Part shown: one piece after another, positions 24,204 to 63,936 of the stretch
How the letters are laid out: each line of letters opens with the position of its first letter
Numbering within the stretch: position 1 is the first letter of the stretch
Source of the DNA: an uncultured delta proteobacterium
GTDB lineage: Bacteria > Myxococcota_A > Polyangia > Polyangiales > Polyangiaceae
Reading direction: 5' to 3'
Length of the DNA stretch: 64,000 nt
Assembly (NCBI GenBank): GCA_903906315.1
Contig: CAIVJW010000384.1
Span: 1-64,000 of the forward strand
Position numbers and translations under genes: made by a program
The notes under the pieces: model-generated
The model's database searches: none
Told to the model about the DNA's origin: nothing
What the model saw: only the letters and a program-made list of their open reading frames with translations

Positions 24204-24205
24204 CA

Positions 24206-27025: not shown

Positions 27026-27027
27026 GG

Positions 27028-39355: not shown

Positions 39356-40141
39356 CTACACCCCCGCCAGCCTCTTCAACACTCCTGCCGCAACGAGCGC
39401 CTCGAACTGGCTGACGAGGCCGCGTGCGAACGTCGCGTCCTCCACCAGCGCGCCCGCCTCAATGTTCCTCTCCTGCGCGGCCTCCGTGAAATTAGCCGAG
39501 CCGACGTACGCGGTTCGGCCGTCGACGACGACGCATTTCGCGTGGAGCGCCGCCCGCTTCGCGCCGCGCTCATGGAGCTTGAGCGCGCGCGGATCGTAGT
39601 AGACCTCGGGCAGCCGCGTGCCCGGCCACTGCTCGTCGCGAAAGCGATCTGCGAACTCCTTCAGGAGCTGCGTCGAGGACGTCGTGTCCTTCCGCCGCCG
39701 TTCGACGTTCAGGAACATGCGCGCCTCGAGCTGCGGCTGCGTTGCCAGACGCTCGGCGAGAGCGCCGAACACGGAGTGCCCTTGGTGGACCGCGAAGCCC
39801 GCGATGAGCACGCTGCGGGTAGCACGCCCGAACAGCTCGCGGATCACCACGCTCGTATCGCGGCTGCTCATCCCCGCGACCTCCGGCCCCGACCACACCA
39901 GCGCGGCGGTGCTGCGCGCAGATTGGGACGCGTCGACCAGCTCGAGCGCGACGGCGATCTGCGCTGGCCCGAGCCCCCGTACGTCGAGCCCGGCGAGCTC
40001 GTCAGCGATCGCGGCTGCCGCCGCCAGCCCGGTGTACAGCCGAACGGAGAGCGGCGTGTAGGGCGGTCCGAGGCGCCCTGCCTCCAGCGCGGATGCGAGC
40101 GCGCGCCTCGCGTCGCGCGGGATCGTTGCGAGCGCCGACAT
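39356..40141 (-). CDS. drmC: DISARM protein DrmC (PLD-family)
   Basis: 261 aa. The C-terminal PLD/HKD motif reads LHAKCVVVDGRTAYVGSANF with TEAAQERNIEAG following (about residues 195-225). The N-terminal half is helical with PYTPLSVRLYTGLAAAAAIA. Length and layout match DrmC, the phospholipase D-fold protein at the end of DISARM core operons. Its ATG overlaps the drmB stop (TGATG). Confidence 0.85.
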   Translation of the reverse strand: MSALATIPRDARRALASALEAGRLGPPYTPLSVRLYTGLAAAAAIADELAGLDVRGLGPAQIAVALELVDASQSARSTAALVWSGPEVAGMSSRDTSVVIRELFGRATRSVLIAGFAVHQGHSVFGALAERLATQPQLEARMFLNVERRRKDTTSSTQLLKEFADRFRDEQWPGTRLPEVYYDPRALKLHERGAKRAALHAKCVVVDGRTAYVGSANFTEAAQERNIEAGALVEDATFARGLVSQFEALVAAGVLKRLAGV

Positions 40142-41991
40142 CAGAGGTCCGCTTCGCCGAAGAACTCGGCGCCGAGATCCTCGACCGTCGGGATCACGAG
40201 GCTCCGGTCGAGCCAGTCGTTCCGACGCTCGCAGGACGGTTCGGCGATCAGCAGGCAGCCATGGCACGCGGCGCCGTGGAGGTACCGCTCGGCGATCGGG
40301 TCGTTCGGGCGGTGCTGCGCGCACACGGGATCGTTGGAGCAGAGGGTGCCCATCTCCAGCGCCGCGCGCAGATGCTCCTCGATGTTGCGGCCGATCTGAA
40401 CGAGCCCGCCGAGCGTCCCCTCGGAGTCGGGTGTGCCGGTGTAGAGAAGAATTCCGAGGCCCGCCTCGGTGGGGTAGATGCGCTCGCGGATCGAGCTGGC
40501 AGAGTACCCGCACGCGAGCGACAGCGCCTGAATGAGCAGGTGCGACAGCGAGTGCAGCAGGATGTACCGCGGTCCGGGAAACTCCCCGTAGGCGCCCGAG
40601 TTGCGCGTCTTCCAGCGATCGAAGCCCTCGCGCAGGGCCCTGATGCGCCAGTCGACGGCGGGGCGCTCGAGCCACCTGGAGACGTCGTCCTGCCGGAACG
40701 TGACGAGCACCCCCTCGCCGCGGTTCTCTACGGCCGGCACCCAATTCGCGTCGCGAGCAAGCGGTGCGCGGCGAACGTCGAGGGCGAGCTCGCCGTCGAT
40801 GTCGGGCATCGCCGACTCGAACCGCGTGAACCCGATCTGCGCGGTGACCTCGCGAAGACGATGAACGAGGACCACCCGGTCGACCTTCTTCATCGGCCCG
40901 TCCTGACTCGCTGGGCGAGGCAGTGGTGCCGCGAAGAACTCGCGCTCGGGGACGTCGTCGACGGCGCTCTCCGGCTGCGCGAGCAACGTCTCGATCTCCG
41001 CCTGCTTGATGCTCTTCTCTGCCGGCGTCGCGTTCGACTTGCGTCGCTGGATCTCGTGCAGCACCGCCTCATCGGAGAGGCCTTCGAGCGTCGAGGCGAC
41101 GTTGGCGCGGCGGCGCTCCTTCTTGAGGTCCCCGAGATCCTCGACGTAGAGCAGGTGCTGGTCCCAGACTCGCTCGACGGCCTCGCGGAGGCGCTCGTCC
41201 GAGTCCGGGATGGAGATGACGCTGAGCACCTGCGCGAAGTAGGAGTTGCTCGCCGAGCGGAGCAGCAGCCGGTTCGGCAGGGCCTTGCCGGTCGTGCCTC
41301 CGCAGTCCTCGTTGGCGCCGGCGCCGAGCCAGGGGCGCTTTCCGCGACACGGGCCGAGGGGGGCGCCGCCCTCTCCGGTGGGGAGCGCCTGCACGAGCGA
41401 TCGGCTCGCGCCGCACTCGCAGCGCACGAAGACGGCGGCGAGATCGCCGCTGGTCCCGCGCTCGTCGATCCAAAGCTTCCGGCGGCACGAGGATGTTCCC
41501 GTGTGCGTGAACCAGTGCCAGTCGAGGTCGGAGATGTGGCCGTTCGCGCACGCTTGCACGAAGCGCACGGGCACGACGGGGTGCCGCTTCCTGTCGGGGC
41601 CAATCCAGCACGAGCCGCCTACGAGGTCTCGCTCCGACACGAGGCGGCGGGAGCGGACGTTCTCGCCCCAGACCTCGTCCTTCTGCACGACGAACCAGCT
41701 CGGGAACCGCCACACCTGGATGCCGGTCTTGGGCGCGTCGGACGCGGCGGAGTCCACCGGCGGCGCGAATAGACGCACGTCGTCGCGGCCGAGGACGCGG
41801 CGCACCTTTGCCAGCAGGCGGTCCTCGCGGATCGCACGGAAGCCGCCCTCGTCGGGATCGCCCCACAGGTCGAGGCCGCCGATGAGCACCGAGTGCTGTG
41901 GCAGGTCGAGCATCGCGCCCGGCCCGAACGACGTCACGACCTGGCTCTGCCGGATCTGCCCGTGCGGGCGGGCCTTGGGTTTCGGCCTCAC
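40141..41991 (-). CDS. drmB: DISARM protein DrmB (DUF1998)
   Basis: 616 aa from GTG overlapping the drmA stop (GTGA). It begins with the family's RQSQVVTSFGPGAMLDLP and contains CANGHISDLDWHWF, several Cys pairs that probably bind zinc, the YSASSIRERIYP stretch, and the C-terminal CHGCLLIAEPSCERRNDWLD. DUF1998 proteins accompany a large helicase in DISARM and related systems; DrmA and DrmB are thought to act as a complex on DNA. Confidence 0.9.
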   Translation of the reverse strand: MRPKPKARPHGQIRQSQVVTSFGPGAMLDLPQHSVLIGGLDLWGDPDEGGFRAIREDRLLAKVRRVLGRDDVRLFAPPVDSAASDAPKTGIQVWRFPSWFVVQKDEVWGENVRSRRLVSERDLVGGSCWIGPDRKRHPVVPVRFVQACANGHISDLDWHWFTHTGTSSCRRKLWIDERGTSGDLAAVFVRCECGASRSLVQALPTGEGGAPLGPCRGKRPWLGAGANEDCGGTTGKALPNRLLLRSASNSYFAQVLSVISIPDSDERLREAVERVWDQHLLYVEDLGDLKKERRRANVASTLEGLSDEAVLHEIQRRKSNATPAEKSIKQAEIETLLAQPESAVDDVPEREFFAAPLPRPASQDGPMKKVDRVVLVHRLREVTAQIGFTRFESAMPDIDGELALDVRRAPLARDANWVPAVENRGEGVLVTFRQDDVSRWLERPAVDWRIRALREGFDRWKTRNSGAYGEFPGPRYILLHSLSHLLIQALSLACGYSASSIRERIYPTEAGLGILLYTGTPDSEGTLGGLVQIGRNIEEHLRAALEMGTLCSNDPVCAQHRPNDPIAERYLHGAACHGCLLIAEPSCERRNDWLDRSLVIPTVEDLGAEFFGEADL

Positions 41992-44900
41992 GACTCCTCC
42001 TCCTGCTCGAGCAACGCGCCGTCGAAGGTCTTCACCCAGAGGTTCACGCTCGGCTCGACGTCACGGAGGGAACGATGCGCGCGGAACTTCCGAGCGTCCG
42101 GCCCGAGCGTCTTCAGCTCGGGGTCGAGTGGGTCTCGCAAGAGGGGCGGCGCCTCGCCCACCTCGCGCTGGTACTGCAGCCCCGCTCCGTGTTCCTTCTG
42201 GCGTGTGCCGATCCGACTCCACGAGTCGAGGAGGTCGTCGATGCGTCCCTTCAGGTGCGCGGTCTCGCCCTCGATGGTCTTCGCGGCGAGGTCTCGGTCG
42301 TGCGCAGCGAAGCGCGTGGAGAGTGCGGCTGCTGCCTCGTTTGCAGCGGAGCGATGGACGCCGAGCTCGCGCGCGCTGGCCGGAGCCGTCAGCGCGCCGA
42401 CGCCGTGCCGCACGAGGGCGACGGTGACGCCGGCCAGGCCGCGGTCCACCGCGCGGGGCGCGAACGGCGTGACGCTGGTCGCCTCGACGGATCGGTAGAA
42501 GCTCTCGTGGTACGCCTCGAACCGCTCGTAGTGGGAGCGGTCGCGCGGACGGTGGACGTTGAGCAGCGTGACCACGAGCCCCGGGCGCGCGTCGTCGCGG
42601 CCGACCCGGGAGGTCGCCTGGATGTACTCGGCCGTCGTCTTGGGCTGCCCGAGCACGACCATGAGGCCGAGGCGCGTGATGTCGAGACCGACGGAGATCA
42701 TGTTCGTCGCGAGCGCGACATCGACGTGGTCGTCCTCGGTGTAGGGCATGGCGAGCCGACGCTTCGTGTCGGCCACCTTCGCGGTGCTCTCACGACTGGT
42801 GAGCTCGAGCACTTCGTAGGCGATCCTGCGCCCAGCGAAGGGACCGGCCTGCTGGCCGACGCGTCGCCGGCGGTCGAACCCGACGAGGCGCGAGCTGACC
42901 TCGTCCTCGACGATCCGTCGGCTGCCACCCAGCTCGCGCAGGCTGTTGAAGTAGCCGAGCAGCGTCATGTACGGGTCGGCGGGGTTGTCCGCGTTGCGAC
43001 TCCCGCCTTCTTCCTCGTAGATGCGGGCGACGGCCGCCATCAGCGCGAGGTACGTCCGCAGCAGCACGACCTTGAGGCTGCGCCCCTGCGCGGCGATACC
43101 GAGGTAGAGGCGCGCGTGGCGGGCGCCTGCCTTCGGGTCTTCGAGCTCGATCGCCGGCACCGTCTTCGCAAAGAACGAGTCGCGAACGTCGGGTCCCGGC
43201 GGCGGGAAGATGTCGACGTCCCTCCTCGCGAAGAGCGCGTGGATCTGCTTTTCAGCGCGCCGAATCGTCGCCGTCGAGGCGATCACCTTCGGTCGCACGG
43301 TCTTGCCGGAGGTCGTGCGCGAGGTGAGCGCGTCGAGCGCGGTCTCATAGAGCCCCACCATCGTCCCCAGCGGCCCCGAGATGAGGTGCAGCTCATCCTG
43401 GATGATGAGGTCGGGCGGGAGCAGCGCGTGCTCGAGCGGCCGGCCGCGCGTCGGCTCGCACGGCCCGTAGAACCCCTCCGCGTCGTGACGCTCGACCTTG
43501 CCGAAGAGCGCTCCGGTCTCGCCGACCCACGGCAGGCTCGCGAACTTGTCGACCGTCGCGATGAGGAAGCAGGGCAACCTGCGGTAGATCGGCTCGTCGA
43601 CCGCGACGACGGGGAGCAGCCGGTCACGCGAGAACTCGCAGCGCCGGTTCACGCACGACACGCGGAGGTCGGTCGGGTGGTCTTCGTTCAGGCGACCGTT
43701 CGCGACGAGCGTGAACGAGGCCGGCTTGAACTTGGTGCCGCACCAGGGGCAGTTCTCGAGCGGGATCGGGCTCGGCTTCTTCTCGTCGTTGCGGAACGCG
43801 ATGGTCTTGGACCGCGCCGAGCTCTTGTCGCCATCTCCCTTCGCTCCCATCCGGTTCGGCGTCGCGGCCTGCCCGACCCACAGGCCGATCTCGAAGGGCC
43901 AGGTGCCGAGCGTCGCGACGTCGGCGGCGCGTTCGAGCTCGAGTGCGCAGATCAGCGTCGCTGCGCGTCCCAGCTGGTCGAGCGTCAGCAGGCGGAGCGT
44001 GTAGCGCATCAGCACGCTCATGCCCGCCGAGAGGACGCCCGGGTTCTCGAGACGTCGCAGCACGAGGGTGACCGCGGCGAGGCCGAGGTACGCCTCCGTC
44101 TTGCCGCCCCCGGTCGGGAAGAACAAGAGGTCCACCGTCTCACGGTCCGCGTGCTTCGGGTCCACGATCCCCGGGAGGTTCATCAGCACGAAGGCGAGCT
44201 GGAACGGCCGCCAGGTCGGGACGGCGCCGGGCTTGTCGTACGTGCGCGGGTCCCGCTGCCTCGCGGCCCGCGCCATCGCGCGGTTGGCGAGGCGGAAGGC
44301 CAACCGCGCACGGTCGTTCGTAGCCAGCAGCTCGATGCCGGCGGCGATGCGCCGACGCACGTTCTCCGCCCGCCGGAGTAGCTCGACGGCGACGTCCCTG
44401 CGAGTCGCGTGGTCGATGGGGGTGCCGCGTTGCTGCTCGATCCACGTCGCGTATGCGTCCACGAGCGCGCCGAGCGAGTCGCGCGCTGCGGCTGCGCTGT
44501 CGAGTTCCGCGAGCGCTTCCATGCCGAGCTCGACCTTGGCCGGAACCGCGCCAGGCACGACCCTCTCGACCTCGGCGCGGGGGGCCCACGTCGTCTCGAC
44601 CTCGGCGCACACGCGGTCGTCCCGCACGTGCGCTGTCGTCGCCGCCCCATGCCCGACCGCGAACTCGAAGACGCCGCGGTACTGCAGGTCCGCGACCTGG
44701 TCGTCCCAGTCCTTGCCGTCGCGACCGCGGAGGTTCGGTCGCGCCACGAAGCCGACGAGATTCGACCGGGCGAGGATGGGGAGGGCCATCGCACCGAGCG
44801 ACTGGGGTCGTGCGACCGGCTCGACGTGCAGACGCAGGGCGACCTGGAAGATGAACCCGGCGTCGCGTTGCACATCCGGTGTCGGGGTGCGCTTGTTGAC

Positions 44901-45485
44901 GAGGAAGACGGACACGGCGCGCGTCCCGGCGGGCACGAGCTTCGACGCGCGGCTCGAGACCGGCCGACAGCTCACGACGAGCTCCAGTCCGTCCGAGCTC
45001 GGCACCGGGTAGGGCTTGCGGCCCGTCTTGACGCCGACCGGCACGTCCTCGCTCCGCGGCGTGCGCTGCCAGAGCTCTCGCCCGCGTGTCGACGCTGGCG
45101 CCGTGTCCTCCTCGTCGGGCGCAGCCTCGACGACGCGGTAGTCGCCCCAGGAGACGGTCACGACGATCTCATCAATGCCCTCGGGGACCAGCACGCTCGC
45201 CCCCATGGACGACGGGAGGTGGGCGCGCCGCGTCGACGCGCCGTCGGGCGTCGCGTCGTCGTCCGTGCCGGCGGCTCCCGCGACCCCTAGCTCCTCGTTC
45301 GCCGTCTCGTCGGTACGGTCCCTCTCCTCCGCCTCGAACGGCACCAAGAACCCCGTGAGGTACCAGCGCGAAGGAGGCGTATCGAGGACCTCGCTTTCGA
45401 GCGCGTGCCCGGGCGTAGGGCCGATCAGATCGAGCTCGACGACGGAGGCGAGCTCGGCGCGGACGTGGGCGGCGGTGCGGGGCAT
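41988..45485 (-). CDS. drmA: DISARM helicase DrmA
   Basis: 1165 aa from ATG 45485; the frame upstream of it runs into the transposon-end repeats and is not used. Walker A FFPTGGGKTEAY at about 452-462, DEAH-like IIQDELHLISGPLGTMV (about 695-710), STATIRRAEKQI (motif III region), a CPWCGTKFKP zinc knuckle, and late helicase motifs with TNMISVGLDITRLGLMVVLG and ATSRVGRDD. This is the DrmA layout. The separation of drmA from drmMI by about 10 kb of other genes is abnormal; the gene itself is intact. Confidence 0.92.
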   Translation of the reverse strand: MPRTAAHVRAELASVVELDLIGPTPGHALESEVLDTPPSRWYLTGFLVPFEAEERDRTDETANEELGVAGAAGTDDDATPDGASTRRAHLPSSMGASVLVPEGIDEIVVTVSWGDYRVVEAAPDEEDTAPASTRGRELWQRTPRSEDVPVGVKTGRKPYPVPSSDGLELVVSCRPVSSRASKLVPAGTRAVSVFLVNKRTPTPDVQRDAGFIFQVALRLHVEPVARPQSLGAMALPILARSNLVGFVARPNLRGRDGKDWDDQVADLQYRGVFEFAVGHGAATTAHVRDDRVCAEVETTWAPRAEVERVVPGAVPAKVELGMEALAELDSAAAARDSLGALVDAYATWIEQQRGTPIDHATRRDVAVELLRRAENVRRRIAAGIELLATNDRARLAFRLANRAMARAARQRDPRTYDKPGAVPTWRPFQLAFVLMNLPGIVDPKHADRETVDLLFFPTGGGKTEAYLGLAAVTLVLRRLENPGVLSAGMSVLMRYTLRLLTLDQLGRAATLICALELERAADVATLGTWPFEIGLWVGQAATPNRMGAKGDGDKSSARSKTIAFRNDEKKPSPIPLENCPWCGTKFKPASFTLVANGRLNEDHPTDLRVSCVNRRCEFSRDRLLPVVAVDEPIYRRLPCFLIATVDKFASLPWVGETGALFGKVERHDAEGFYGPCEPTRGRPLEHALLPPDLIIQDELHLISGPLGTMVGLYETALDALTSRTTSGKTVRPKVIASTATIRRAEKQIHALFARRDVDIFPPPGPDVRDSFFAKTVPAIELEDPKAGARHARLYLGIAAQGRSLKVVLLRTYLALMAAVARIYEEEGGSRNADNPADPYMTLLGYFNSLRELGGSRRIVEDEVSSRLVGFDRRRRVGQQAGPFAGRRIAYEVLELTSRESTAKVADTKRRLAMPYTEDDHVDVALATNMISVGLDITRLGLMVVLGQPKTTAEYIQATSRVGRDDARPGLVVTLLNVHRPRDRSHYERFEAYHESFYRSVEATSVTPFAPRAVDRGLAGVTVALVRHGVGALTAPASARELGVHRSAANEAAAALSTRFAAHDRDLAAKTIEGETAHLKGRIDDLLDSWSRIGTRQKEHGAGLQYQREVGEAPPLLRDPLDPELKTLGPDARKFRAHRSLRDVEPSVNLWVKTFDGALLEQEEES

Positions 45486-49133: not shown

Positions 49134-49163
49134 GTCCACCTCCGGTCCAGACACCCGGAGGCG

Positions 49164-49204: not shown

Positions 49205-49321
49205 TGTTTGCGTGGCCCTCTCGGAACGGGATCAGGATGGCGGCGGCGACCCTCGCGTCACGCGGCTGCGCTCATCGATCGCTTGGCTCGCCGATCCCCA
49301 CGGACTATGCTTCGTCGCACG

Positions 49322-49984
49322 ATGTCGATCGGCGCGTACACCGCGGAGCGAGCCGCCGCCCTGTCGGGCGTGCCCAAGTCGACCCTTCATTGGTGGGCTC
49401 GTAACGACATCCTCGTCCCCAGCGTCTCACCGACCAAGGTGAGGCTCTGGTCGCACTCCGATCTCCTCGCCCTCCGCGTGATCTACTGGCTCCGGCAGAA
49501 GAAGACCGCCGAGACCGGCGTCGAGGTCCCCTCGAGCAGCATGCCCGCCGTTCGACGCGCGCTCCGCGAGCTGCAGAGCCTCTCCATCCCCCTCTGGCGA
49601 GACGATCGCCCTTCGGTCCTCGTCGACACGAAGGGGCAGATCCATATCGACGCGAAGGCCGGCGTGGAGACGCTGACCGGGCAGCTCGTCGCGCCCGAGA
49701 CGCTCGACCTCATCGCCCCGTTCACGACCATCGAGGGCAGCACGGGGCCCGACCTGCTCCGCCCGCGGCCGCTCTTGCGGATCGTGCCCGGCAAGCTCGG
49801 CGGCTCGCCGCACGTGGACCACACGCGGCTCGAGACCCTGGCTCTTGCCTCCCTCCGCGCGGACGGGCTGACGGCGGCTGCGATTCGCGAGCTCTACCCC
49901 TACCTCGAGGAGCAGCAGATCATCGAAGCGCTCGACCTCGAGGAGCAGCTCGCCCGCAACCTTACCATCGCGGCGGCGGCCTGA
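49322..49984 (+). CDS. VapB45-like antitoxin (MerR-type HTH plus DUF433-like region)
   Basis: 220 aa. A MerR-like N-terminus (YTAERAAALSGVPKSTLHWW, KVRLWSHSDLLALRVIYWLR) is followed by a second HTH/DUF433-like C-terminal domain (LRADGLTAAAIRELYPYLEE). This two-domain layout is the antitoxin of the VapBC45/DUF433-DUF5615 type of system. An ATG at 49307 would add five residues. The toxin gene follows immediately. The only rightward genes within the DISARM block. Confidence 0.75.
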   Translation: MSIGAYTAERAAALSGVPKSTLHWWARNDILVPSVSPTKVRLWSHSDLLALRVIYWLRQKKTAETGVEVPSSSMPAVRRALRELQSLSIPLWRDDRPSVLVDTKGQIHIDAKAGVETLTGQLVAPETLDLIAPFTTIEGSTGPDLLRPRPLLRIVPGKLGGSPHVDHTRLETLALASLRADGLTAAAIRELYPYLEEQQIIEALDLEEQLARNLTIAAAA

Positions 49985-50491
49985 TTGGAACGGCGCCTCT
50001 TCGCGCTCGATCACAACTTCCCCGAGCCCATCGTGCTCGCGATCGCCAAGGCGATCCCGGCCGCCGAGCTCGTGCCCGTGCGGGCGATCGGCCCTGAGCT
50101 AGCCGAGCTCGAGGACTGGGAGCTCCTGGCCAGGCTGCACCGGGACGAGCGCACGTGGGACGGGCTCATCACCAATGACGTGGCGATGCTCTCGCAGCCG
50201 AAGGAGATGACCGCGCTGAGCCAGACCCGCCTGACGCTCGTCGTCGCCCGTGGCGAGGGGAGCAACCCGATCCGCGCGGCCGGGGTGCTGCTCTGCCATC
50301 TCAATCACATCTGCCGCCACACGACGCATGAGCGCGCGCAGATCTGGGACCTGCGCGTGAAGCAGAAGAACGCCGAGGAGCCGCGCGCCTTCCTCGAGAG
50401 GATCGCCGAGAAAACCGGCACGACGCCCGAGGAGCTGGTCCGCGTGAATCGGCTCGACGCGAAGCTCCTCGGCGAACGGCGACACAGCTAG
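49985..50491 (+). CDS. PIN-like toxin (VapC45/DUF5615-type)
   Basis: 168 aa from a TTG directly after the antitoxin stop. Acidic residues in ALDHNFPEPI, LEDWELLARL and LITNDVAML sit where PIN ribonucleases carry their metal-binding Asp residues. The C-terminal helix region (HICRHTTHERAQIWDLRVKQ) is typical of the larger DUF5615-like relatives. Expected to cleave RNA when the antitoxin is lost. It stabilises the island or acts as an abortive defence. Confidence 0.75.
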   Translation: MERRLFALDHNFPEPIVLAIAKAIPAAELVPVRAIGPELAELEDWELLARLHRDERTWDGLITNDVAMLSQPKEMTALSQTRLTLVVARGEGSNPIRAAGVLLCHLNHICRHTTHERAQIWDLRVKQKNAEEPRAFLERIAEKTGTTPEELVRVNRLDAKLLGERRHS

Positions 50492-50511
50492 GCGGGCCCG
50501 CGGACGCCGCA

Positions 50512-54203: not shown

Positions 54204-55402
54204 GATGAGCCTCCGGCAACGCCGAGGTCGACGGCGAGCTGCCCCAGGGCCGCGAGTCGATAGGGATGAAAACCGACGCCCGTCTCGAGGTTCTTCGTCC
54301 CCGCGGCCGGCAGCCTCTCGATGCGCGCCCCGTTGAGCTCGATCCAGGCATCTCCGCCCTTCGCGTCGGCGTGGTGTCGGAGGAGCTCGCGCACGAACTC
54401 CCTCACGTCCTCGGTCGCGAGCTTCGCGAGCTCGAACGGTCTCGGATCGAGGGCGAGCTGTCCGAGGTCGACCGTCCGTAGAGCGGCCTCCAGGCGAAGC
54501 GCTCCGCGCAGCGCGCCCATCGCGAGAGACGCTCGCTCATCGAGCTCCGACGGAGCGGTCTCGAGCTCCTCGAACGACAGCCGCGCGCGCGCCTTGCGGG
54601 CCTTCTCGAGCGCGTTCACGAGGGGCCCGATGGACTTGTCCACGCGCGTGAGCGTCGCCGAGAACGCGTGCTTGAGGCCCGTCGAGACCCACTCCCAGAC
54701 TTGGGCGCAGTGAAGCACCCACGCGGGGTCATCGCTGGGGGCGCCGCCGGGCAGCTTGGCCGCAGTCGCGAGCGCCACGCCCGGGCTCAGTCCCGCGAGG
54801 TCACGCACCCGCCGTCCCAACGTCTCGAGCGTGTGGGCACGTCGCGCCATGCTTTCGCTCGCGTTGCCGCGCCGGTCGAAGCCCAGGCGCTTCCGGAGCA
54901 GGGCAGCCTCTCGGCCCGGCACTTCACTCAAGCACGGCCGCGCCGTCCCCGTGTACATGCGGGCGACCGCCAAGCCGTCGTCCGTCAGCTCGGCCGGCGC
55001 GCGCCGGTCGAATAGGCCGAGCGCGCGGAGCAGCGGTCGGTACTGGCTGAAGGCCGTCGTGCTGTAGAGCAGCTCGGGCCGGGCGGGGCGCCCGGTCTTC
55101 AACGCGCTCGCAATCCGAGATCGCCCGACCACGGCCGGGCACTCGTCGCCGCGTTCGTGCCGCTCGGCCTCCGCGAGCGCGAGCTTCCCTTCCGCCCGCC
55201 GCAGCGCCGCGATGCGGTCCTTCTCCTTGCGCGCGCGCTGCGCCGCCCAGCAGAAGAACGACAGGTAGCGCGCCCGGCGCGTCAGCACGGAGATCTCCGG
55301 CAACAGGAGGTCCGCGAAGAAGTCGGCCTGCGCCGCCAGGCCCAGGGCGTCGACGGCGATCTCGCGCGACGGATCTGCTTGCACCCACGCGAACGTGCCC
55401 AT
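54200..55402 (-). CDS. DUF6361-like protein
   Basis: 400 aa. The N-terminus (MGTFAWVQADPSREIAVDAL, ADLLLPEISVLTRRARYLSF) resembles DUF6361 proteins, which have a comparable ADLLFPG...TRARYFLF segment. The rest is helical and unfamiliar, with no catalytic motif. Ten bases separate it from the drmMI C-terminal gene, so the cassette is continuous with the DISARM operon. The family assignment is from memory of the motif and moderate at best. Confidence 0.65.
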   Translation of the reverse strand: MGTFAWVQADPSREIAVDALGLAAQADFFADLLLPEISVLTRRARYLSFFCWAAQRARKEKDRIAALRRAEGKLALAEAERHERGDECPAVVGRSRIASALKTGRPARPELLYSTTAFSQYRPLLRALGLFDRRAPAELTDDGLAVARMYTGTARPCLSEVPGREAALLRKRLGFDRRGNASESMARRAHTLETLGRRVRDLAGLSPGVALATAAKLPGGAPSDDPAWVLHCAQVWEWVSTGLKHAFSATLTRVDKSIGPLVNALEKARKARARLSFEELETAPSELDERASLAMGALRGALRLEAALRTVDLGQLALDPRPFELAKLATEDVREFVRELLRHHADAKGGDAWIELNGARIERLPAAGTKNLETGVGFHPYRLAALGQLAVDLGVAGGSS

Positions 55403-55412
55403 GCTCCCCCCT

Positions 55413-57002
55413 CTACCCGAACAGCCCGCCTTGCCCCGTCGGCGGCGTTCGGGTCTTCGCCTTCTTCGTGGCGGTCGCCGCGCGCTCCTCCGTCGGCTGT
55501 CGCCTCTTCTTGGCGGCCTGCACGAGCTTCACCTCCGCCCCCGCGAGCCGCTCCTCCTCGGCCCGCTCCGCGTTCAGCGCGAGCAGCCGCGCGAGCACCT
55601 CGTCGCGCACCTCGTCCAGCCAGCGCCAGCGCCAGGGCTTCTTGCGCTTCTTCGCGCGCCCGTCGTCGTCCTCAGCCTCGTCCTCGTAGTCGAGGAGGAA
55701 CTCGCAACGCGGGATGACGTCGGTCCAGCCGTAGGCGTCGAGGACGGCGCGGTCCATCGCGTCGTGCAGCTCGCGCAGGCGCAGGATGCCGACGTCGTGC
55801 TCGTCCGGGTCGTGGAAGCGGTTGTACGTCGCCGTCAGGCCCTGGTCGTTCTGGACCATGAGCGCTGCGCGGAACTCGTAGTAGACGCGACCGGCATCCT
55901 CAAGGGTGGCGTTCGGTTCCCAGTTCGTAGGGAACGGGAACGTTTCGAAGCAATCCGATGGCGTGTAGCGAGGATCGTCTTTGAAGCTGGAACCGCGAAA
56001 CCGGACCCACGCCTCGTGAACGCGAGACTGGAGGAGCGCGAGCGCCGCGTCCTGAGGCAGCGCAATTACGACGACGGTGTGTCCGAAAACCACGTTCGAC
56101 GGCTGGAAGGCAAATGCAAGGTGCGTGCTCACCTGCGACGTCGCAAGCACTCGCGGGACTCTGGCAACGGCATCAAACAGCGCGTGGGAGTATTGCCCCC
56201 ATCGCCACCAGTGCGCCTTGCGCCGCTTCGCGTCGCCCTCGTCGCCCAGCTTGTCGCGCGTGGGCTTCACTCGCGTTTCCAAAAGCGCCATGAGGTCAGG
56301 CCATCGTCGAGCCTCTTGCTCGGTCATGTCAGCGAAGTTGATCACGTGGCCACGAAGCGCCTGCTGCGGATCGGTGTTGATCTGCTCGCCGCCTTGGAAT
56401 GGAAACACCCGTTCCGCGTTTCGAGGGTCGCGACGGACCACTTCCCGAAGGTCCTCGATGGAATTCGCGCCGGGATTACCGTCCTCGAAAATGAACCCGG
56501 CACCCAGAATGTAGCTGCCGACGAACGCCCTCCCTGCGTTCGCGTGAAGGTGCGGGGGATCGTTGTCGCACCCAGTACCGAGTAGGTACGCAGAGACTCT
56601 GTCGACCTCCTTTCCGTTGAGGTGGCAGGGCGTCGCTGCGACCCCGCGGCGCAGATGAACCACGCTGACGATCACAGCCGCGACACCTGGCCATCTCACG
56701 CGCTTGCACGCGTCGTAGATGTGGCCGCCGTTGGTGCAGATCCACCCGAGGCCCGTGCACCGAGTATCGCCCTGGGCCACCGTGTTTGTTGCAATGAGCC
56801 CTGCCGTGCCTCCCGGTCTCAGCAGGTCGAACGCTCGCCGAAGGAAGTAGGCCGCCAGGTCGCTGCTGCCGTGTGCTCCTGGAAAGACCTCGCAGAGGAA
56901 GTAGACGTACTCCTTGCCTTGGCCTGCGAAAATCAGGTTCTTGTGGGCGAACGGAGGGTTCCCGACGAAGGCATGAAAGCCGCCGCGCTTCTCGTCGCTC
57001 AT
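55413..57002 (-). CDS. Methyltransferase catalytic half B (NPPF motif), PglX/DrmMI-like
   Basis: 529 aa from ATG overlapping the preceding stop (ATGA). It begins as the second half of a PglX/DrmMI-type N6-adenine methyltransferase: GGFHAFVGNPPFAHKN (motif IV NPPF at 15-18), SSDLAAYFLRRAFDLLRPGG, TAGLIATNTVAQGDTRCTGL, WPGVAAVIVSVVHLRRG. A target-recognition region and a charged C-terminal extension follow. It has no SAM-binding motif I of its own and so must pair with the half encoded at 58063-60432. It looks like the canonical DrmMI C-half. Confidence 0.85.
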   Translation of the reverse strand: MSDEKRGGFHAFVGNPPFAHKNLIFAGQGKEYVYFLCEVFPGAHGSSDLAAYFLRRAFDLLRPGGTAGLIATNTVAQGDTRCTGLGWICTNGGHIYDACKRVRWPGVAAVIVSVVHLRRGVAATPCHLNGKEVDRVSAYLLGTGCDNDPPHLHANAGRAFVGSYILGAGFIFEDGNPGANSIEDLREVVRRDPRNAERVFPFQGGEQINTDPQQALRGHVINFADMTEQEARRWPDLMALLETRVKPTRDKLGDEGDAKRRKAHWWRWGQYSHALFDAVARVPRVLATSQVSTHLAFAFQPSNVVFGHTVVVIALPQDAALALLQSRVHEAWVRFRGSSFKDDPRYTPSDCFETFPFPTNWEPNATLEDAGRVYYEFRAALMVQNDQGLTATYNRFHDPDEHDVGILRLRELHDAMDRAVLDAYGWTDVIPRCEFLLDYEDEAEDDDGRAKKRKKPWRWRWLDEVRDEVLARLLALNAERAEEERLAGAEVKLVQAAKKRRQPTEERAATATKKAKTRTPPTGQGGLFG

Positions 57003-58063
57003 TGCAGCCCCTCCCACCAGAGGTGGACGCGCGTTCGCTCCTCCTCAGTGAGGCCGAACGCAGTCGCGACGCGTGCGTCAAGGTCGGCCTGCTCCGCGAC
57101 GTCGAGCCCCGCGTTGCGCTCCGACCACGCCCGCCCGAGCGCTGCGAGGTCCTTCACGAGCGCAGTGTTCGGCGGCGCCGGCGTCGCGCGCAGGTGGCCG
57201 ATCTTCATCTGCGGCATGCCCTGCCGCGCATCGCGGTGGCGCATGTAGTGGAGCCAGCGGATCGGCGTCGCGTTCAGGTACGCGACCAGGAAGGCTGCCG
57301 GGTGCTCGTCGTCCTCGAAGCCGGCCAGGATCGAGTTGCGGAAGCCCACGCCGTCCGAGAGCGCGGCCATCGGCACGCGCGCGGTCTGGCGAATGAGCAC
57401 ACGCACGGCCTCCCACTCGGCCGGTTCGCGCAGGCGATCGCGGAACCACGCCGGATCCGCGTAGTTCGACGGCAGCTTCCGGCGGAAAGGCTCGAGGTCA
57501 CTCCCCACGCGGAGCGCGACCGAGTGGACCGCGTCGGGAGCCGCGGCCAGGTGATGGGTGTCCGGCCCGGAGCTCTGCAGGCCGCGCTCGCCGAAGAGGT
57601 GCGGCGGAAGCGCAGGCCGGTCCATCTTCGCGAGGAGGCGGCGCGCGCCCTCGTCGAGGTCGGGGCGCTCGACGGGCCACGGCTCCGCCTCGCTCATCGT
57701 GCGATCGTTGGCGAGGCGCGTCGACCGGAGCACCATGCTCGGCTGGAACACGCCGAGGAAGCCGTCCTCGCCGAGGTCGGGCAGGTCGTCGTCGCAGGTG
57801 CACCGCTTGTCGTGCGCCAGCCGCGTCGGGGCATAGCCGTTCTGCTCGGACATCGAGCTCGGCAGGATGATCCCCATGCGACCGCCGGGTACGAGCAGCT
57901 CGGCGCAGCGCTCGACGAACATGCCCTGAAGGTTCCTGAAGCCTGCGAAGCTCTCATACCGGTCGAGGAAGTAGCGCCGCAGCGGCTCGGCCATCGGCTG
58001 CGCCGCCTTGCCCGCGTAGGAGACCCAGGGAGGGTTGCCGACCAGGGCCGAGAAGCCGCGCAC
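56999..58063 (-). CDS. Methyltransferase catalytic half A (NPPW motif)
   Basis: 354 aa from GTG sharing one base with the upstream TAG (TAGTG). It starts RGFSALVGNPPWVSYAG with NPPW at 10-13, then FVERCAELLVPGGRMGIILP, the strand pattern of an N6-adenine methyltransferase second half. A target-recognition-like region follows. It lacks motif I. It is not closely related to half B, so the locus has two successive catalytic halves behind one SAM-binding half. Confidence 0.85.
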   Translation of the reverse strand: MRGFSALVGNPPWVSYAGKAAQPMAEPLRRYFLDRYESFAGFRNLQGMFVERCAELLVPGGRMGIILPSSMSEQNGYAPTRLAHDKRCTCDDDLPDLGEDGFLGVFQPSMVLRSTRLANDRTMSEAEPWPVERPDLDEGARRLLAKMDRPALPPHLFGERGLQSSGPDTHHLAAAPDAVHSVALRVGSDLEPFRRKLPSNYADPAWFRDRLREPAEWEAVRVLIRQTARVPMAALSDGVGFRNSILAGFEDDEHPAAFLVAYLNATPIRWLHYMRHRDARQGMPQMKIGHLRATPAPPNTALVKDLAALGRAWSERNAGLDVAEQADLDARVATAFGLTEEERTRVHLWWEGLQ

Positions 58064-60432
58064 TACGGCCCTCCCGTGGGCGCCGCCGCGCCGCCATCGA
58101 ACACCTCGGGGAACTCGATCTCCCAGTGGAACGGCGTGACGCGGTCGGCCTCCGGCGTCGCGGGCAGGTCGGCAAGGCCGCGCGTCTCGACGTGCGCTCG
58201 GTAGTCCTTGAGCCTCGCCTCGCGGTCCTTGGGCGTCTTGCCGCTGAAGAAGGCCTCGATGACGAGGTCGCCGACCCGACGCACCGTCTCGAGCGACTCG
58301 TCGGCTTCCCGAAGCAGCCGCCGCTTCTCGCCGGTGTCGTCGGAGTCGCCGAGCGCGTGGATGGCGGCCCGGAGGACCCGCGCGCGGTCGATCGCGGCGT
58401 CGAGCTGCTTGCGGATGAGCGGCACCTGGCCCTTCGGCGCCCAGTGGAAGCTCGCGATCTGCTCGCGCGAGAGGCCGACGAGCGAGTCCCCCTGCCGGAG
58501 CGAGTGGTCAAGGAACGTGAACGGGTGGTCCTTCGCCAGCGTGACGAGCCACAGCGAGAGCTTCGCGAGGTCGACCGCGAACGGGTTCTTGTCGACGCCG
58601 TAGAGGCAGCGCTGCGCCACGAGGCGGCGCGCGTGGAGCACGGGGTCCTCGTCCGGCGGAAGCGCCGGCATCCCGTGCCGCTGCCACGCCTCGACGAGGT
58701 GGTCCCCGAGCCAGCGACATGCGGCCACGAGAAACGCCCCGGAGCCCATCGCCGGATCGCAGACCTTGAGGCCCAGGAGCTGCTCGGCCTTCGGCGACGG
58801 ACCGAGGTCCGCGACGATCGGCCGCAGCGTCTTCTCGACGATGGGCTCGGTGAGGGCGCGCGGCGTGTAGTGCGAGCCCGACCGGCGCCGTTCCTCCGTC
58901 GGCTGAAGGATCATCGTCCCCGGCGGGAGCACCTCGGGCGTGCGCGGCGAGACGTTGCTGCCGAGGGCGTGCTTCAGCTCCTCGGGCGTCTTCGCCTGCT
59001 TGATGGCGTCCTGCGCCTTCCCCGTCGGCTTGCAGCCCGCCTCGTCGGCGAGGGCCTTGAGCCGGTCCGCCCCCGAGCGTGCGAGGAGCGAGGTCGCGCC
59101 GAGGGTAACGTGGTGCGGCCTCACCGCGATCGACGGCTCCAACACCGTCTCGATCGTGAAGCCCATCATCGCCTCGTAGACGCTGCCGATCTGCTCGACG
59201 TCGAGCGCGCGGTAGGAGAGGCGCTCGCCGCCGAGCAGCAGCAGGTTCTCGAGGACGCGGAACACGACGCCGTCGGCCACCTTCGGCGGGTCGAGCGGCT
59301 CGCCCACGACGCGCGTCGTGCGCCACGGCCGCCCTTCGAGGAACGGGTGGGCGTCCGGATCGAACAAGCGGCCATAGTGCGGGGAGAGCCGCAGCTTGCC
59401 GTGGGCTCCGCCGTCGTGGATGAGGCGGAAGAGCGACAGCAGCCGTGACCAGGCGCCGAAGCGCCGGTCCATGTCGTCCGGGTAGCGCGCGGCGTCGTCC
59501 CGCAGCTTCTCGAACAGCGCGGTCACCGCGTAGTGCCGGACGTACACCGGGTCGGTCGAGAGCAGCGAGCGGTCCTCCGCGTAGAGCACGAAGACGAGGC
59601 GCAGGAGCGTGGCGAGCAGCCCGCCGTAGATATGACTCGGCTCCTCGCGCAGCACTTCGGCGAGCAGCCGCTCCTCGGTCGCGGCGTTCGCCGCCTGGAA
59701 GCCGCGCAAGAGCTCGTGCAGCGCGGCGAGCACCTGCTCGGCGAGCCGGGTCGAGACCTCGTTCTGGTATCGGCGGCTGTCCTTCAGGATCGCCGGCAGG
59801 CGCGCCGCTTCGGGCCCGCGGAACAGCCGCGCCGCGCCGAGCAGCATGTAGACCGCGCCGGCGATCGATCGGCCAGCCGACTCGCACATGTTCGGGACGC
59901 TGAATGTGATGTGCCCCGAGGACTCGCCGCGCGGCGCGTACACGAGCCGCAGCGCCTCGCCCGAAAAGAGCAGGCCGATGGGCACGTCGAGCTCTCGCAG
60001 CATTCGCTCGAGGCGAGCCTGCGGGGTCGCTTGCCATCCGGCGTCGCTCTGCGCCTTGTCGAGGTCCGTCGCCTCCGGCACGACGCTCACGAGGATCAGC
60101 CACCGGCCCTCGCCGCTCGGAACCGCCCACGTCGGCCGCAGCGTCTCGCCGTACTCGGGGAGCGGCACGGACAGCTCCTCGGGGGGCGCTAGGAGATCGC
60201 CATCCTCCCACTCGAGCACCTCGCGCACGAGCGCGCGCAGCTCCCGGACACACTTCGGCGAATCCTCCGGCGTGGCCAGCGCCCGGAGTGCGCGCTGTGC
60301 GGTCGCCCCCTCGACGTTGCCGAATGTGCACTGCGCTTTCTCGAGGGCCGGAAGCGACACGACCAGCCCGACCGGCTGAACGAAGCCGAGCCATTCCTGG
60401 TGGCGGCGGAGCTCGGGATTCACTGTGGCCAT
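58063..60432 (-). CDS. DrmMI-like methyltransferase, SAM-binding N-terminal half
   Basis: 789 aa from ATG 60432, four bases after the drmD stop. Late residues hold GSHYTPRALTEPIVEKTLRP, motif I VCDPAMGSGAFLVAACRWL (about 556-574) and YGVDKNPFAVDLAKLSLWL. The chain ends just after TPFHWEIEFPEVF, exactly where single-chain relatives continue into GGFDA(I/F)VGNPPF. The split is therefore at the natural hinge. N-terminal residues 1-500 are the large helical region of PglX-type enzymes. In class 1 DISARM this gene is one polypeptide. Confidence 0.87.
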   Translation of the reverse strand: MATVNPELRRHQEWLGFVQPVGLVVSLPALEKAQCTFGNVEGATAQRALRALATPEDSPKCVRELRALVREVLEWEDGDLLAPPEELSVPLPEYGETLRPTWAVPSGEGRWLILVSVVPEATDLDKAQSDAGWQATPQARLERMLRELDVPIGLLFSGEALRLVYAPRGESSGHITFSVPNMCESAGRSIAGAVYMLLGAARLFRGPEAARLPAILKDSRRYQNEVSTRLAEQVLAALHELLRGFQAANAATEERLLAEVLREEPSHIYGGLLATLLRLVFVLYAEDRSLLSTDPVYVRHYAVTALFEKLRDDAARYPDDMDRRFGAWSRLLSLFRLIHDGGAHGKLRLSPHYGRLFDPDAHPFLEGRPWRTTRVVGEPLDPPKVADGVVFRVLENLLLLGGERLSYRALDVEQIGSVYEAMMGFTIETVLEPSIAVRPHHVTLGATSLLARSGADRLKALADEAGCKPTGKAQDAIKQAKTPEELKHALGSNVSPRTPEVLPPGTMILQPTEERRRSGSHYTPRALTEPIVEKTLRPIVADLGPSPKAEQLLGLKVCDPAMGSGAFLVAACRWLGDHLVEAWQRHGMPALPPDEDPVLHARRLVAQRCLYGVDKNPFAVDLAKLSLWLVTLAKDHPFTFLDHSLRQGDSLVGLSREQIASFHWAPKGQVPLIRKQLDAAIDRARVLRAAIHALGDSDDTGEKRRLLREADESLETVRRVGDLVIEAFFSGKTPKDREARLKDYRAHVETRGLADLPATPEADRVTPFHWEIEFPEVFDGGAAAPTGGP

Positions 60433-60436: not shown

Positions 60437-63400
60437 TCACCCCGTCGCCGGCCATAGGTAGACCACCCCGAGTGGGTCGACCCGATGAGCTCGCACCTCG
60501 TAGCTCCGGCGGATCCGCGCAGGCTCGCTCGCGAGCTCCTTCTCGAGCTCCGCAACCCGTCGGCGCCAGTGACGCTGATCGGCCTCAGCCTGCCTGCGCT
60601 CGGCGTCGTTCCATCCGGCGAACTTCAGCGCGAGCTGTCCACCGTCGACGTCCCTCAGGAGCTCGCCGATCCGCGTGCGCTGTGTCTCGAGCACCTCGCC
60701 GAGGTCGCGCGCCTCGCGCTCGCCGCGTGCGAAGAGCTGCTCGACCGCGCGGTCAGCCTTCTTCTTGGCGAGGGCGTGGAGCTCGGGCAAGAGCTCGGTG
60801 ACGTCTTGTTCGAGCGACCGCCGGAGCTTCGCTGCCGCGCCCTCGTGCGCGGGGCGCGCGGCTCGCAGGGCAGCCTCGACCAGGTCGAGCGTTCGGCGCT
60901 TGGCATCCTCGCCGTAGGCCTTCAGCGGCTCGCGGCGGAGGGCCGGATCGCCCCATCGAGCGGCCACGGCGACGATCTCGTCGTGGAGCCGCGACGCTCG
61001 GTCGCCGTAGAGTGAGAGGCGCCCGAGCAGCACGACGCGCGGGATGGGATCGTCCGACACCACGGCGCACGCGCGCGCGAGGTCGTCGTGCACGAAGCCT
61101 TGCGCGAGGAACCGCCCCAGCAGGCGCTGAACGAGCCTGTGCTCGAGGTGCAGGTGGACGTAGCGGTCGTCGAGCGACCCGACGTCGCGGAACACGACCG
61201 GGCGGATCGGTGCGCGCTTGCGCCAGTCCCACGGCTTCTCGTCCCGCTCGCGGGGCAACCGCAGCGTGTCGAGCGTGTCGGTCCACGTCGGGTCGGTCCG
61301 GAGGCGCGCGTCGTCGGGCGGGAGCCGGTACACCTCGGGTGCGCCGGGCAGCGGTTCGAGCGGGCGTGCTCCGGAGAGCTCGAGCGACGCGGAGAGCGCA
61401 CCGCGGAACGCGTCCTCCTCGAAGCCGAGCGCCTCCTTGGCGCCGGCCATCAGATCGCGGAGCGTGCCGAGCTGCTGCGCAAGCGCTCCGCTGCGCTCGC
61501 GCACCCCCTCCATCTCCTCCTCGGCGGTCGCCTTCGCGTCCGGGTCGACGTCGGCGGAGTCGATCGCCAGCGAGAGGCTCTCGACGTCGGTGCGCCGAAA
61601 GCCCCCTTCGAGCATGCGGCCGAGCCGCCCGTCGAGCACCGGTCCGAGGCTCCCGAGCTCCTCATAGATGCGCTTCGTCTTGCGCACGAGCGTCGCGAGG
61701 ACGCGATCCTCGGGGCGGTCGGCGTAGAAGAAATAGTGGCAGCGGACCACTGGTGCGCGCTGGAGCTTCCGGTCGATGCGGCCGTTGCGCTGCTCCATGC
61801 GGCTCGGGTTCCACGGCACGTCGAAGTGGAAGAGATCGGCGCAGTGGTTCTGCAGGTTCACGCCCTCGCGCGCGGCGTCCGTCGCGATGAGAACGCGGAG
61901 CGGGTGGGCGTCGGGGTCTGCGTTGAAGGCGCGCTTGATGGCCTCGCGGCGCTCGTCGTCCATCCCGCCGTGGAAGGTCTCGATGCGGGCGTCGGCGTCG
62001 TGGGTGCTCGCCAGGAGGCCACGGAGCTGCTCGTCGAGGTACCGCTTCGTGTCCGCGAACTCGGTGAAGATGAGGACACGGGTGCGGTTCCAGGACCGCC
62101 CATTGGCTTCGAGGCAGTGCTCGCGGATCCATGCGACGAGCCGGCTGATGCGCGCGTCGGCGTCGCCGCGGGCTCCCTCGGCGACCGCCGTCATCTTCTC
62201 GAGCAGCGTGTGCTCGCGCGCGTCGAGGTCCTCCCCGGCGAGCGCAGCCACCGTCGCGGCCTCGACCTGAGAGTGCTCCTCGGTGCGCACGTCGTCCTCT
62301 CGCAGTTCGGCGCGATCGTCGTCTGCCCCGGGGGCTTCGATGGCGAAGAGGGCCGCCTGGCGGGCCGGCGCGGACGCATGCTTGGCCCGCGCCTTCGCCA
62401 CGCTCCGCCGATGAACCTCGAGCGTGGAGGCGAACGCCTCGATCGAGGAGAGCAGCCGCTTCTGCAGCGCGGTGAGGACGATCGTGGCTGCGTTGCGCGC
62501 CATCTTCGAGGCGTTCTTCGCGCGCGCCTCGCGCAGCTCGCGGTACTCGTCGAGCAGGCGCGGCAGCACCAAGTCCGGTGAGTCGGCGGGGAGCCCCGAG
62601 AGCGTGTGCTGCACGACTTCGCGCTTCGGGAACGCGATCCCTTGGTCGCGCAGGTCGCCCTTCAGCCGGCGGACCATCACGGCGTCGAGATGCCGCGGGC
62701 TGACCTTCACCCCGCGGCAGAACCGCTGCGGGTCGAGGATCTCGAGGAGCGCGCTGAAGCTGTTGGAGTGCCCGTTGTGCGGCGTCGCCGAGAGGAAGAG
62801 CCGGTGCTCGAAGAGCGGCGCGAGCTCCCGCACGGAGCGGGTGAACCGGGAGTCGACCGCGTACTTTGAGCCGGAGGCGGGCGCGGCGTTGTGCGCCTCG
62901 TCGAGGATCAGAAGCGTGCCGCGCGGCTGTCCGGGTTCTTCCTCCTGCGAGAGCCAGTCGCGCAGCGGCGCGGCGTAGGTCTCGTCGCGCAGGAGTGCGT
63001 GGGAGATGATGAAGCGGCTGTGCGTGGCCCAGGGGTTCACGCCGTAGCCGCGCTCGCGCCGCTTCTGGACGACGTAGTCCCGGTCGAGCACGACAAACCG
63101 CAGGCCGAACCTCTGCTCGAGCTCCGCCTGCCACTGCAGGACGACCGAGGGAGGCACCGCCACGACGATGCGCCGAACCTTCTGGCGGATGAGAAGCTCT
63201 CGCGTGATGAGCCCCGCCTCGATCGTCTTGCCGAGGCCGACGTCGTCCGCGATGAACAGGTTCACGCGCGGGAGCTGGAGCGCCTTGCGGATCGGCTCGA
63301 GCTGGTACGCCATGACCTCGATGCCCGCCCGGTACGGCGCCTGGAACAGCCGCGGTTGGGTCGAGGTGACGCAGCTCCACCGCAGCGTGTGCAAGTATGC

Positions 63401-63640
63401 CGCGAAGAGGTCCGGCGGGTCGAGCCCGCGTACGGAAGCGCGCGCCCACGAGGCGCCGGTGATGGTGCGCGCGTCGATCTCCCGCTCCCAGAGCACATCG
63501 AGGGCCTCCCCCTGCGCATCGTCGTCGAGGCAGGAGAGCCGAACGAGCGTGTCGTCCCCCGGCGACGGCGGAGGGGCGACCTCTTCGACGAGGTAGCGGC
63601 GGCTGCGGACGGCGACGATCTGACCGGGCGTGGGAAGCAT
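60437..63640 (-). CDS. drmD: DISARM SNF2-like helicase DrmD
   Basis: 1067 aa from ATG 63640 (the longer frame upstream is not supported). ADDVGLGKTIEAG (131-143), LLILDEAHNAAP (244-255), LFLSATPHNGHSNSFSALLE, TEFADTKRYL, then DAAREGVNLQNHCADLFHFD and RMEQRNGRIDRKLQ. The C-terminal 350 residues are coiled-coil-rich. This is the class 1 DISARM helicase and the first gene of the leftward operon. Confidence 0.92.
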   Translation of the reverse strand: MLPTPGQIVAVRSRRYLVEEVAPPPSPGDDTLVRLSCLDDDAQGEALDVLWEREIDARTITGASWARASVRGLDPPDLFAAYLHTLRWSCVTSTQPRLFQAPYRAGIEVMAYQLEPIRKALQLPRVNLFIADDVGLGKTIEAGLITRELLIRQKVRRIVVAVPPSVVLQWQAELEQRFGLRFVVLDRDYVVQKRRERGYGVNPWATHSRFIISHALLRDETYAAPLRDWLSQEEEPGQPRGTLLILDEAHNAAPASGSKYAVDSRFTRSVRELAPLFEHRLFLSATPHNGHSNSFSALLEILDPQRFCRGVKVSPRHLDAVMVRRLKGDLRDQGIAFPKREVVQHTLSGLPADSPDLVLPRLLDEYRELREARAKNASKMARNAATIVLTALQKRLLSSIEAFASTLEVHRRSVAKARAKHASAPARQAALFAIEAPGADDDRAELREDDVRTEEHSQVEAATVAALAGEDLDAREHTLLEKMTAVAEGARGDADARISRLVAWIREHCLEANGRSWNRTRVLIFTEFADTKRYLDEQLRGLLASTHDADARIETFHGGMDDERREAIKRAFNADPDAHPLRVLIATDAAREGVNLQNHCADLFHFDVPWNPSRMEQRNGRIDRKLQRAPVVRCHYFFYADRPEDRVLATLVRKTKRIYEELGSLGPVLDGRLGRMLEGGFRRTDVESLSLAIDSADVDPDAKATAEEEMEGVRERSGALAQQLGTLRDLMAGAKEALGFEEDAFRGALSASLELSGARPLEPLPGAPEVYRLPPDDARLRTDPTWTDTLDTLRLPRERDEKPWDWRKRAPIRPVVFRDVGSLDDRYVHLHLEHRLVQRLLGRFLAQGFVHDDLARACAVVSDDPIPRVVLLGRLSLYGDRASRLHDEIVAVAARWGDPALRREPLKAYGEDAKRRTLDLVEAALRAARPAHEGAAAKLRRSLEQDVTELLPELHALAKKKADRAVEQLFARGEREARDLGEVLETQRTRIGELLRDVDGGQLALKFAGWNDAERRQAEADQRHWRRRVAELEKELASEPARIRRSYEVRAHRVDPLGVVYLWPATG

Positions 63641-63936
63641 CAGGCGGGGGCGGAGAGTACCAAGGGCGGCGGGTCGGTGGGCGCGATGTTCCTCGACAGC
63701 CTGGAATGTGCCCGCCGTTCCCGGACGCTCCCCTGAAGTCGTCCGTCGCCCGGCCGCCAACTTCGGTCAGATCTGGCCGAGGTGCTGCGAGCTGCGGCTG
63801 CGGTGGCCGCTTGGCTTCACGCGGACCAGGGGGTGCCTTCGTCCGCGGCGACGGTGTCGTCGCTCAGGGGCCCGCCGCCTGGGCCAGCACGACCTCCGCC
63901 TCCGGGCCCTGGCCCCCCTGCGCTATCGTGAGCGCC
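63641..63936. other. Divergent control region upstream of drmD
   Basis: No gene seen. It should hold the promoters of the leftward DISARM operon and the rightward NADAR-like gene; no convincing -35/-10 pair was found. Confidence 0.4.

What the first reader, a model, noticed from the sequence alone, without database searches (positions are those of the whole stretch)
55413..60432. DrmMI methyltransferase split into one SAM-binding half and two alternative catalytic halves
The first gene carries motif I (DPAMGSGAF) and ends at the hinge just before the place where single-chain relatives have GGFDAxVGNPPF. It is followed by two separate genes that each begin with that NPP motif: NPPW (56999-58063) and NPPF (55413-57002). 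All are coupled by 1-4 base overlaps. The two catalytic halves differ strongly from each other. One shared SAM domain with two interchangeable halves could give two target specificities from one locus.
Basis: partly seen in the sequence, partly recalled or inferred. Interest (0 to 1): 0.8.

Follow-up and report, generated by a model that had tools for sequence, protein, structure and literature searches.

The report
Split DISARM methyltransferase with two C-halves
In a myxobacterial anti-phage (DISARM) operon, the DNA-methylating enzyme that is one protein in every relative examined is encoded as one shared front half and two different, intact back halves, so one locus may mark DNA at two different sequences; whether both back halves really work with the front half has not been tested.

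Summary
On the minus strand, N (58063-60432, motif I) overlaps A (56999-58063, NPPW) by 1 nt, and A overlaps B (55413-57002, NPPF) by 4 nt. The break falls between motifs III and IV. The locus is a complete type I DISARM, with about 10 kb of other genes before drmA.

N and B are the two parts of an ordinary DrmMI. A is the C-half of a solitary methyltransferase family common in this bacterial family; its closest relative is this genome's own copy on contig C284. All 58 distinct relatives read are single chains. A and B each have a GGAGG ribosome site, and no piece shows decay.

Related DrmMI genes exchange C-halves at this same hinge: body-only divergence between two copies in G381, low third-position GC in several bodies, repeated N-halves in G061. 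So "one N, interchangeable C-halves" is well motivated, but docking and activity are untested. A's recognition-like region is 77% identical to the C284 enzyme's, so N+A probably adds an existing specificity rather than a new one. A one-base error at the N/A junction cannot be fully excluded; B is a stand-alone C-half either way.

The parts
58063..60432 (-). N: N-terminal region and SAM-binding half (motifs I-III) of DrmMI, 789 aa
   Evidence: PADLOC DrmMI 783 bits over model positions 5-867 of 935; stops in the hinge
58732..58758 (-). motif I DPAMGSGAF in N
   Evidence: sequence
56999..58063 (-). A: catalytic half (motif IV NPPW onward) with TaqI_C-like region, 354 aa, of the solitary-methyltransferase family
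   Evidence: Pfam Eco57I 34.6 bits; 70% to C-half of the single-chain enzyme on G000:C284
58025..58036 (-). NPPW of A
   Evidence: sequence
58070..58074 (-). GGAGG ribosome-binding site of A, 6 nt before GTG
   Evidence: background 2.9%
55413..57002 (-). B: catalytic half (NPPF onward) with MmeI-type recognition domain and conserved tail of DrmMI, 529 aa
   Evidence: PADLOC DrmMI 504 bits over 865-1340 of 1347; Pfam MmeI_TRD 46 bits
56949..56960 (-). NPPF of B
   Evidence: sequence
57010..57014 (-). GGAGG ribosome-binding site of B, 7 nt before ATG
55866..57002 (-). body of B with GC3 0.75 (exchange cassette); the tail after it has GC3 0.97
   Evidence: change point at codon 379
60437..63760 (-). 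drmD, SNF2-like helicase (start codon uncertain)
   Evidence: NCBIfam NF038317 1104 bits, cut-off 610
41988..45485 (-). drmA
   Evidence: PADLOC DrmA 965 bits
40141..41937 (-). drmB (MZB/DUF1998)
   Evidence: PADLOC DrmB 244 bits; Pfam MZB
39356..40141 (-). drmC (PLD nuclease)
   Evidence: PADLOC DrmC 307 bits

Best explanation
This is the methyltransferase unit of a complete type I DISARM system, made as three translationally coupled polypeptides. N supplies the N-terminal region and the SAM-binding half of a gamma-class adenine methyltransferase; A and B each supply a catalytic half (motifs IV-VIII) with its own DNA-recognition region. N most likely assembles non-covalently with B, giving the normal DrmMI and the DISARM mark, and alternatively with A, giving an enzyme with the recognition sequence of the solitary methyltransferase family that this genome also carries on contig C284. 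One locus would then place two methyl marks. Shown: gene structure, family of each piece, intactness, ribosome sites, single-chain precedents, and exchange of C-halves at this hinge in relatives. Inferred: assembly in trans, use of one N by both halves, two marks. The arrangement probably arose by exchange or duplication of C-halves at the hinge, perhaps from a tandem pair like that inferred in G381 which lost its second N.
For: N and B are the two parts of DrmMI beside drmD in a locus with drmA, drmB and drmC. A and B both start with GGAGG-preceded codons. Few departures from conserved positions: A 3, B 15, N 8, within the range of relatives. The C-half body is an exchange cassette whose 5' boundary is this hinge: two G381 C-halves near-identical in hinge and tail but about 50% in the body, and GC3 dips in bodies of the window B, L087, L088 and L099. 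L062 and L066 are single chains with a DrmMI-like N (51-63% to DrmMI N-halves) and an A-type C-half; L071 has an A-type chain directly behind a DpdE/DrmD-like helicase. Repeated DrmMI copies in one genome: G381, G061. Motif order differs between amino-methyltransferase classes at the III|IV boundary (PMC2890505), so a chain break there is plausible.
Against: No relative has N with two C-halves or N free of its C-half. A belongs with N-halves only about 40-57% identical to this N, so docking may be weak. Known natural splits lie elsewhere in the fold. The structure attempt failed (pLDDT 31) and no complex could be modelled. The N tree is too weak to prove the chimeras.
Confidence: 0.45

Rival explanations
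1. Only N+B is the DISARM methyltransferase, now working as a two-piece enzyme. A is an inserted C-half that does not pair productively with N: a passenger, or a competitor that titrates N.
For: N and B belong to the same family and A does not. A is kin to the resident solitary enzyme, whose N-half is only 44% identical to this N.
Against: A is intact, has its own strong ribosome site and a close ATGA coupling to B. DrmMI-like N-halves carry A-type C-halves in L062 and L066.
Confidence: 0.22
2. N+A (perhaps also as one frameshifted chain) has replaced N+B as the working enzyme, and B is a displaced but not yet decayed remnant.
For: A lies directly behind N, and N's last residues (VFDGGAAAPTGG) and A's GFSA resemble the hinge of L063 (VFDAGADGGPGFSA) more than typical DrmMI hinges.
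Against: B has its own start with GGAGG, no decay and a native tail. A remnant would not need a start codon at the hinge.
Confidence: 0.15
3. The N/A break is a one-base sequencing or assembly error; the true gene is an N-A chimera followed by a free B half.
For: A single base would join the frames; the genome is a 455-contig draft; the break lies in a linker.
Against: The stop coincides with the only TAGTG in about 24 kb of this strand and with GGAGG at 6 nt. There is no long homopolymer at the junction. B stays a free C-half in any case.
Confidence: 0.12

Closest known systems
DrmMI of type I DISARM (single chain, about 1310-1420 aa)
   Same: N plus B cover the family model from end to end; drmD directly upstream; drmA, drmB and drmC downstream
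   Different: Split at the hinge before motif IV into two genes, with a foreign C-half gene in between
Solitary single-chain Eco57I-type methyltransferases of Polyangiaceae and kin (such as G000:C284, L062, L110)
   Same: A is their C-half, 40-70% identical along its whole length
   Different: There A is covalently joined to its own N-half and is not in a DISARM operon; L071 is the only one seen next to a DrmD-like helicase
Natural two-subunit C5 methyltransferases M.AquI and M.EcoHK31I (PMC3404938)
   Same: One methyltransferase made as two polypeptides
   Different: C5 rather than amino class; split after motif VIII or around motif IX, not between III and IV; only one partner each
Type I restriction-modification with alternative S subunits; phase-variable hsdS or pglX
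   Same: A constant methyltransferase part with changeable specificity
   Different: There the whole catalytic fold is constant and only recognition changes; here catalysis goes with recognition. No inverted repeats
Serratia DISARM with DrmMI and DrmMII (PMC9142583)
   Same: Two methyl marks from one DISARM operon
   Different: Two separate complete enzymes, adenine and cytosine
MmeI (type IIL) and BREX PglX
   Same: Gamma-class single chain with the same order of domains; B matches MmeI 5HR4
   Different: Single chains; no second C-half

Membership tests
Type I DISARM | drmD, drmMI, drmA, drmB, drmC together (definition in PMC9252829) | tested here: met
   All five found by PADLOC or NCBIfam models; about 10 kb of other genes before drmA
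DrmMI | sequence match over the whole family model | tested here: met
   N 5-867 of PDLC02638 and B 865-1340 of PDLC02643; A does not match beyond 22.6 bits
DrmMI | one continuous chain | tested here: not met
   Three frames; 58 of 58 distinct relatives read are single chains as far as their contigs reach
Gamma-class amino-methyltransferase | order I-II-III-IV...TRD with NPP[YFW] | tested here: met
   Order kept across the genes; NPPW and NPPF
Solitary N'-A methyltransferase family | A-type C-half covalently joined to its own N-half, outside DISARM | tested here: not met
   A is free and lies between N and B
Phase-variable specificity system | inverted repeats or a recombinase at the cassette | tested here: not met
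   Only short imperfect repeats; no recombinase gene found within the methyltransferase genes
Two-subunit methyltransferase with shared subunit | assembly of N with A and with B, and activity of both pairs | not testable with these tools
   No complex modelling; model of A alone failed

The most novel reading that the evidence does not exclude
A combinatorial methyltransferase: one SAM-binding subunit shared by two alternative subunits that each carry both catalysis and target recognition, giving one DISARM system two methyl marks, by fixing in trans a hinge at which this family exchanges C-halves anyway.
Probability: 0.42. Interest if true: 0.75.

Novelty: new variant of a known kind. Interest (0 to 1): 0.6.

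Why it matters
If true, it is a natural split through the catalytic fold of an adenine methyltransferase with one half shared by two partners, which shows how a defence operon can gain a specificity without a second whole enzyme. It also makes a general point testable: in DISARM the hinge before NPP looks like an exchange point for whole catalytic-plus-recognition halves, with signs of it in G381 and G061 as well. This bears on how DISARM changes its self mark.

Tried and rejected
(1) Other N/A/B loci: none seen among 317 class genomes; the one scan of genome contigs gave one single-chain relative. (2) Apparent splits in relatives turned out to be contig ends (L083-L085), broken frames (L086, L096, L129) or an IS insertion elsewhere in the gene (Nostoc C057). 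(3) Invertible cassette: no suitable repeats. (4) Conflict between N tree and C tree as proof of recombination: the N tree is too weakly resolved, so only pairwise identities are used. (5) Structure of A from two sequences: pLDDT 31, not used. (6) dN/dS as proof of selection on A after its arrival: synonymous sites are near saturation given codon bias, so at best a weak argument. (8) Literature: no description of a DrmMI with alternative halves found; subscription papers are not covered.

Full report
What is there. On the minus strand three frames follow one another behind drmD: N (58063-60432), A (56999-58063) and B (55413-57002). N's TAG shares one base with A's GTG; A's TGA overlaps B's ATG by four bases. 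N holds motifs I-III and stops in the hinge after FHWEIEFPEVF; A begins VRGFSALVGNPPW and B begins MSDEKRGGFHAFVGNPPF. The Pfam domain Eco57I is divided between N (2-25), A (74-144) and B (71-139), while the single-chain relative L063 carries it in one piece. A matches M.TaqI from residue 98, just before its NPPY at 105-108 (numbering from PMC3874165). So the chain is broken between motifs III and IV, inside the methyltransferase fold.

What the pieces are. PADLOC places N on positions 5-867 of one DrmMI model (783 bits) and B on 865-1340 of another (504 bits); B also has an MmeI-type recognition domain. A scores only 22.6 bits against DrmMI. The upstream gene is DrmD by NCBIfam (1104 bits, cut-off 610). 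drmA, drmB and drmC follow at 41988-45485, 40141-41937 and 39356-40141. The locus is a complete type I DISARM, with about 10 kb of other genes between B and drmA.

Relatives. B-type halves were found in 114 of 317 genomes of the class and A-type halves in 68. Of the 58 distinct relatives fetched and read (38 A-type, 20 B-type), every one is a single chain through the hinge, as far as its contig reaches; a few B-type copies are broken elsewhere (L086, L096). Most B-type chains with enough flanking sequence lie beside drmD or drmA/B. DrmMI of cyanobacterial plasmids, 48-53% identical in N, are also single chains, 1324-1420 aa in those checked. A-type chains are mostly solitary: the neighbours checked are topoisomerase-helicase, esterase, OmpA, acyltransferase and the like. 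The window is the only place seen where A and B follow one N.

Is the split real? A and B each have GGAGG, 6 and 7 nt before the start codon; 2.9% of start-like codons on this strand have that. TAGTG occurs once in about 24 kb of this strand, here. That speaks for an evolved start. But a single base would join N and A, the genome is a draft of 455 contigs, and no second sequence of the locus was available. B is free of this doubt, since A lies between it and N.

Are the pieces alive? Counting positions conserved in at least 90% of relatives (in all relatives for N), A departs at 3, B at 15 and N at 8, each within the range of its relatives. There are no stops or frame breaks inside them. A's branch (0.30) is not longer than those of its neighbours L063 and L062 (0.38 and 0.44).

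Where A came from. A is nearest to the C-half of the single-chain enzyme on contig C284 of the same genome (70%). It shares more synonymous codons with it than codon bias predicts (excess 0.27, against 0.05-0.17 for A with other relatives), while the N-halves of the two loci show no such excess (-0.02). So A, but not N, is kin to the resident solitary enzyme. In the A family the TRD-like region (186-300) is nearly as conserved (mean pairwise identity 0.62) as the catalytic core (0.66), which suggests one conserved target. In the window A this region is 77% identical to C284's, more than the core is (71%). If N+A works, its mark is therefore probably that of the solitary enzyme.

A general feature of the family. 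In G381 two DrmMI C-halves are close in the hinge and in most of the tail (mostly 87-97% per 60 columns) but about 50% alike in the body between. In the window B, GC3 is 0.75 up to codon 379 and 0.97 after it; the same dip occurs in L087 (0.99, 0.79, 0.97 for N, body, tail), L088 and L099, though not in all. The body thus behaves as a cassette whose 5' boundary is the point at which the window's gene is split. Contig ends in G381 fit one simple order, drmD-N1-C1-orf-N2-C2-orf-drmA-drmB: a tandem pair of DrmMI with different C-halves. This is inferred, since the repeat itself is missing from the assembly. In G061 the N-half occurs in four copies 91-94% identical in DNA, one behind drmD and one behind drmC. 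Extra C-halves in DISARM loci have thus probably arisen more than once; the window's version keeps one N for two C-halves.

Precedent for both pairings. N-B is the normal DrmMI. L062 and L066 are single chains with an A-type C-half and a DrmMI-like N: L062's N is 51-63% identical to DrmMI N-halves and 43-49% to most N-halves of A-type enzymes. L071 has an A-type chain directly behind a DpdE/DrmD-like helicase. The N tree does not resolve their place firmly, so this is suggestive only. The boundary III|IV is where the order of the two modules differs between the alpha, beta and gamma classes (PMC2890505), so a chain break there is plausible; M.AquI and M.EcoHK31I are split elsewhere (PMC3404938).

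Judgement. The arrangement is real in the assembly and unusual. The most likely reading is a two-piece DrmMI whose N-half can be completed by either of two C-halves, one with the DISARM mark and one with the resident solitary enzyme's mark. Assembly, sharing and marks are not shown. Rivals are N+B only, N+A only, and a one-base error.

Noticed in passing
window 45835-55402: Between B and drmA lie a DUF6361/ZacA-like gene, a PLD/ZacB-like gene and an SNF2/ZacC-like gene (50512-55402), a MerR-DUF433 gene pair on the plus strand, and a transposition-like pair (rve integrase 46931-48424 with AAA ATPase 46101-46934): a second defence module and a mobile element inside the DISARM operon.
   Followed up: partly
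window 37210-39066: A GmrSD-type (type IV restriction) gene directly behind drmC.
   Followed up: no
window 6544-35692: Probable mobile island: tyrosine integrase (34367-35692), ResIII helicase plus N6/N4 methylase plus UvrD-like helicase (22119-30117, type III-like), and two genes with ParB N-terminal domains (6544-8175, 9933-11678).
   Followed up: no
L135 5415-8705: A different methyltransferase in G329 is split between motif I (DPACGSG, ORF 5415-7076) and motif II (FYGIDINPFAV, ORF 7080-8705); could be a frameshift or another natural split.
   Followed up: no
L159, L160, L161, L162 (genome G061): Four DrmMI N-halves 91-94% identical in DNA, one behind drmD (L161) and one behind drmC (L160): repeated N-halves around DISARM.
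   Followed up: partly
L083 end (4967) and L084 start (1): Both DrmMI genes of G381 have a C-run just upstream of the hinge, at contig ends; a slippage site or merely the cause of the assembly break.
   Followed up: no
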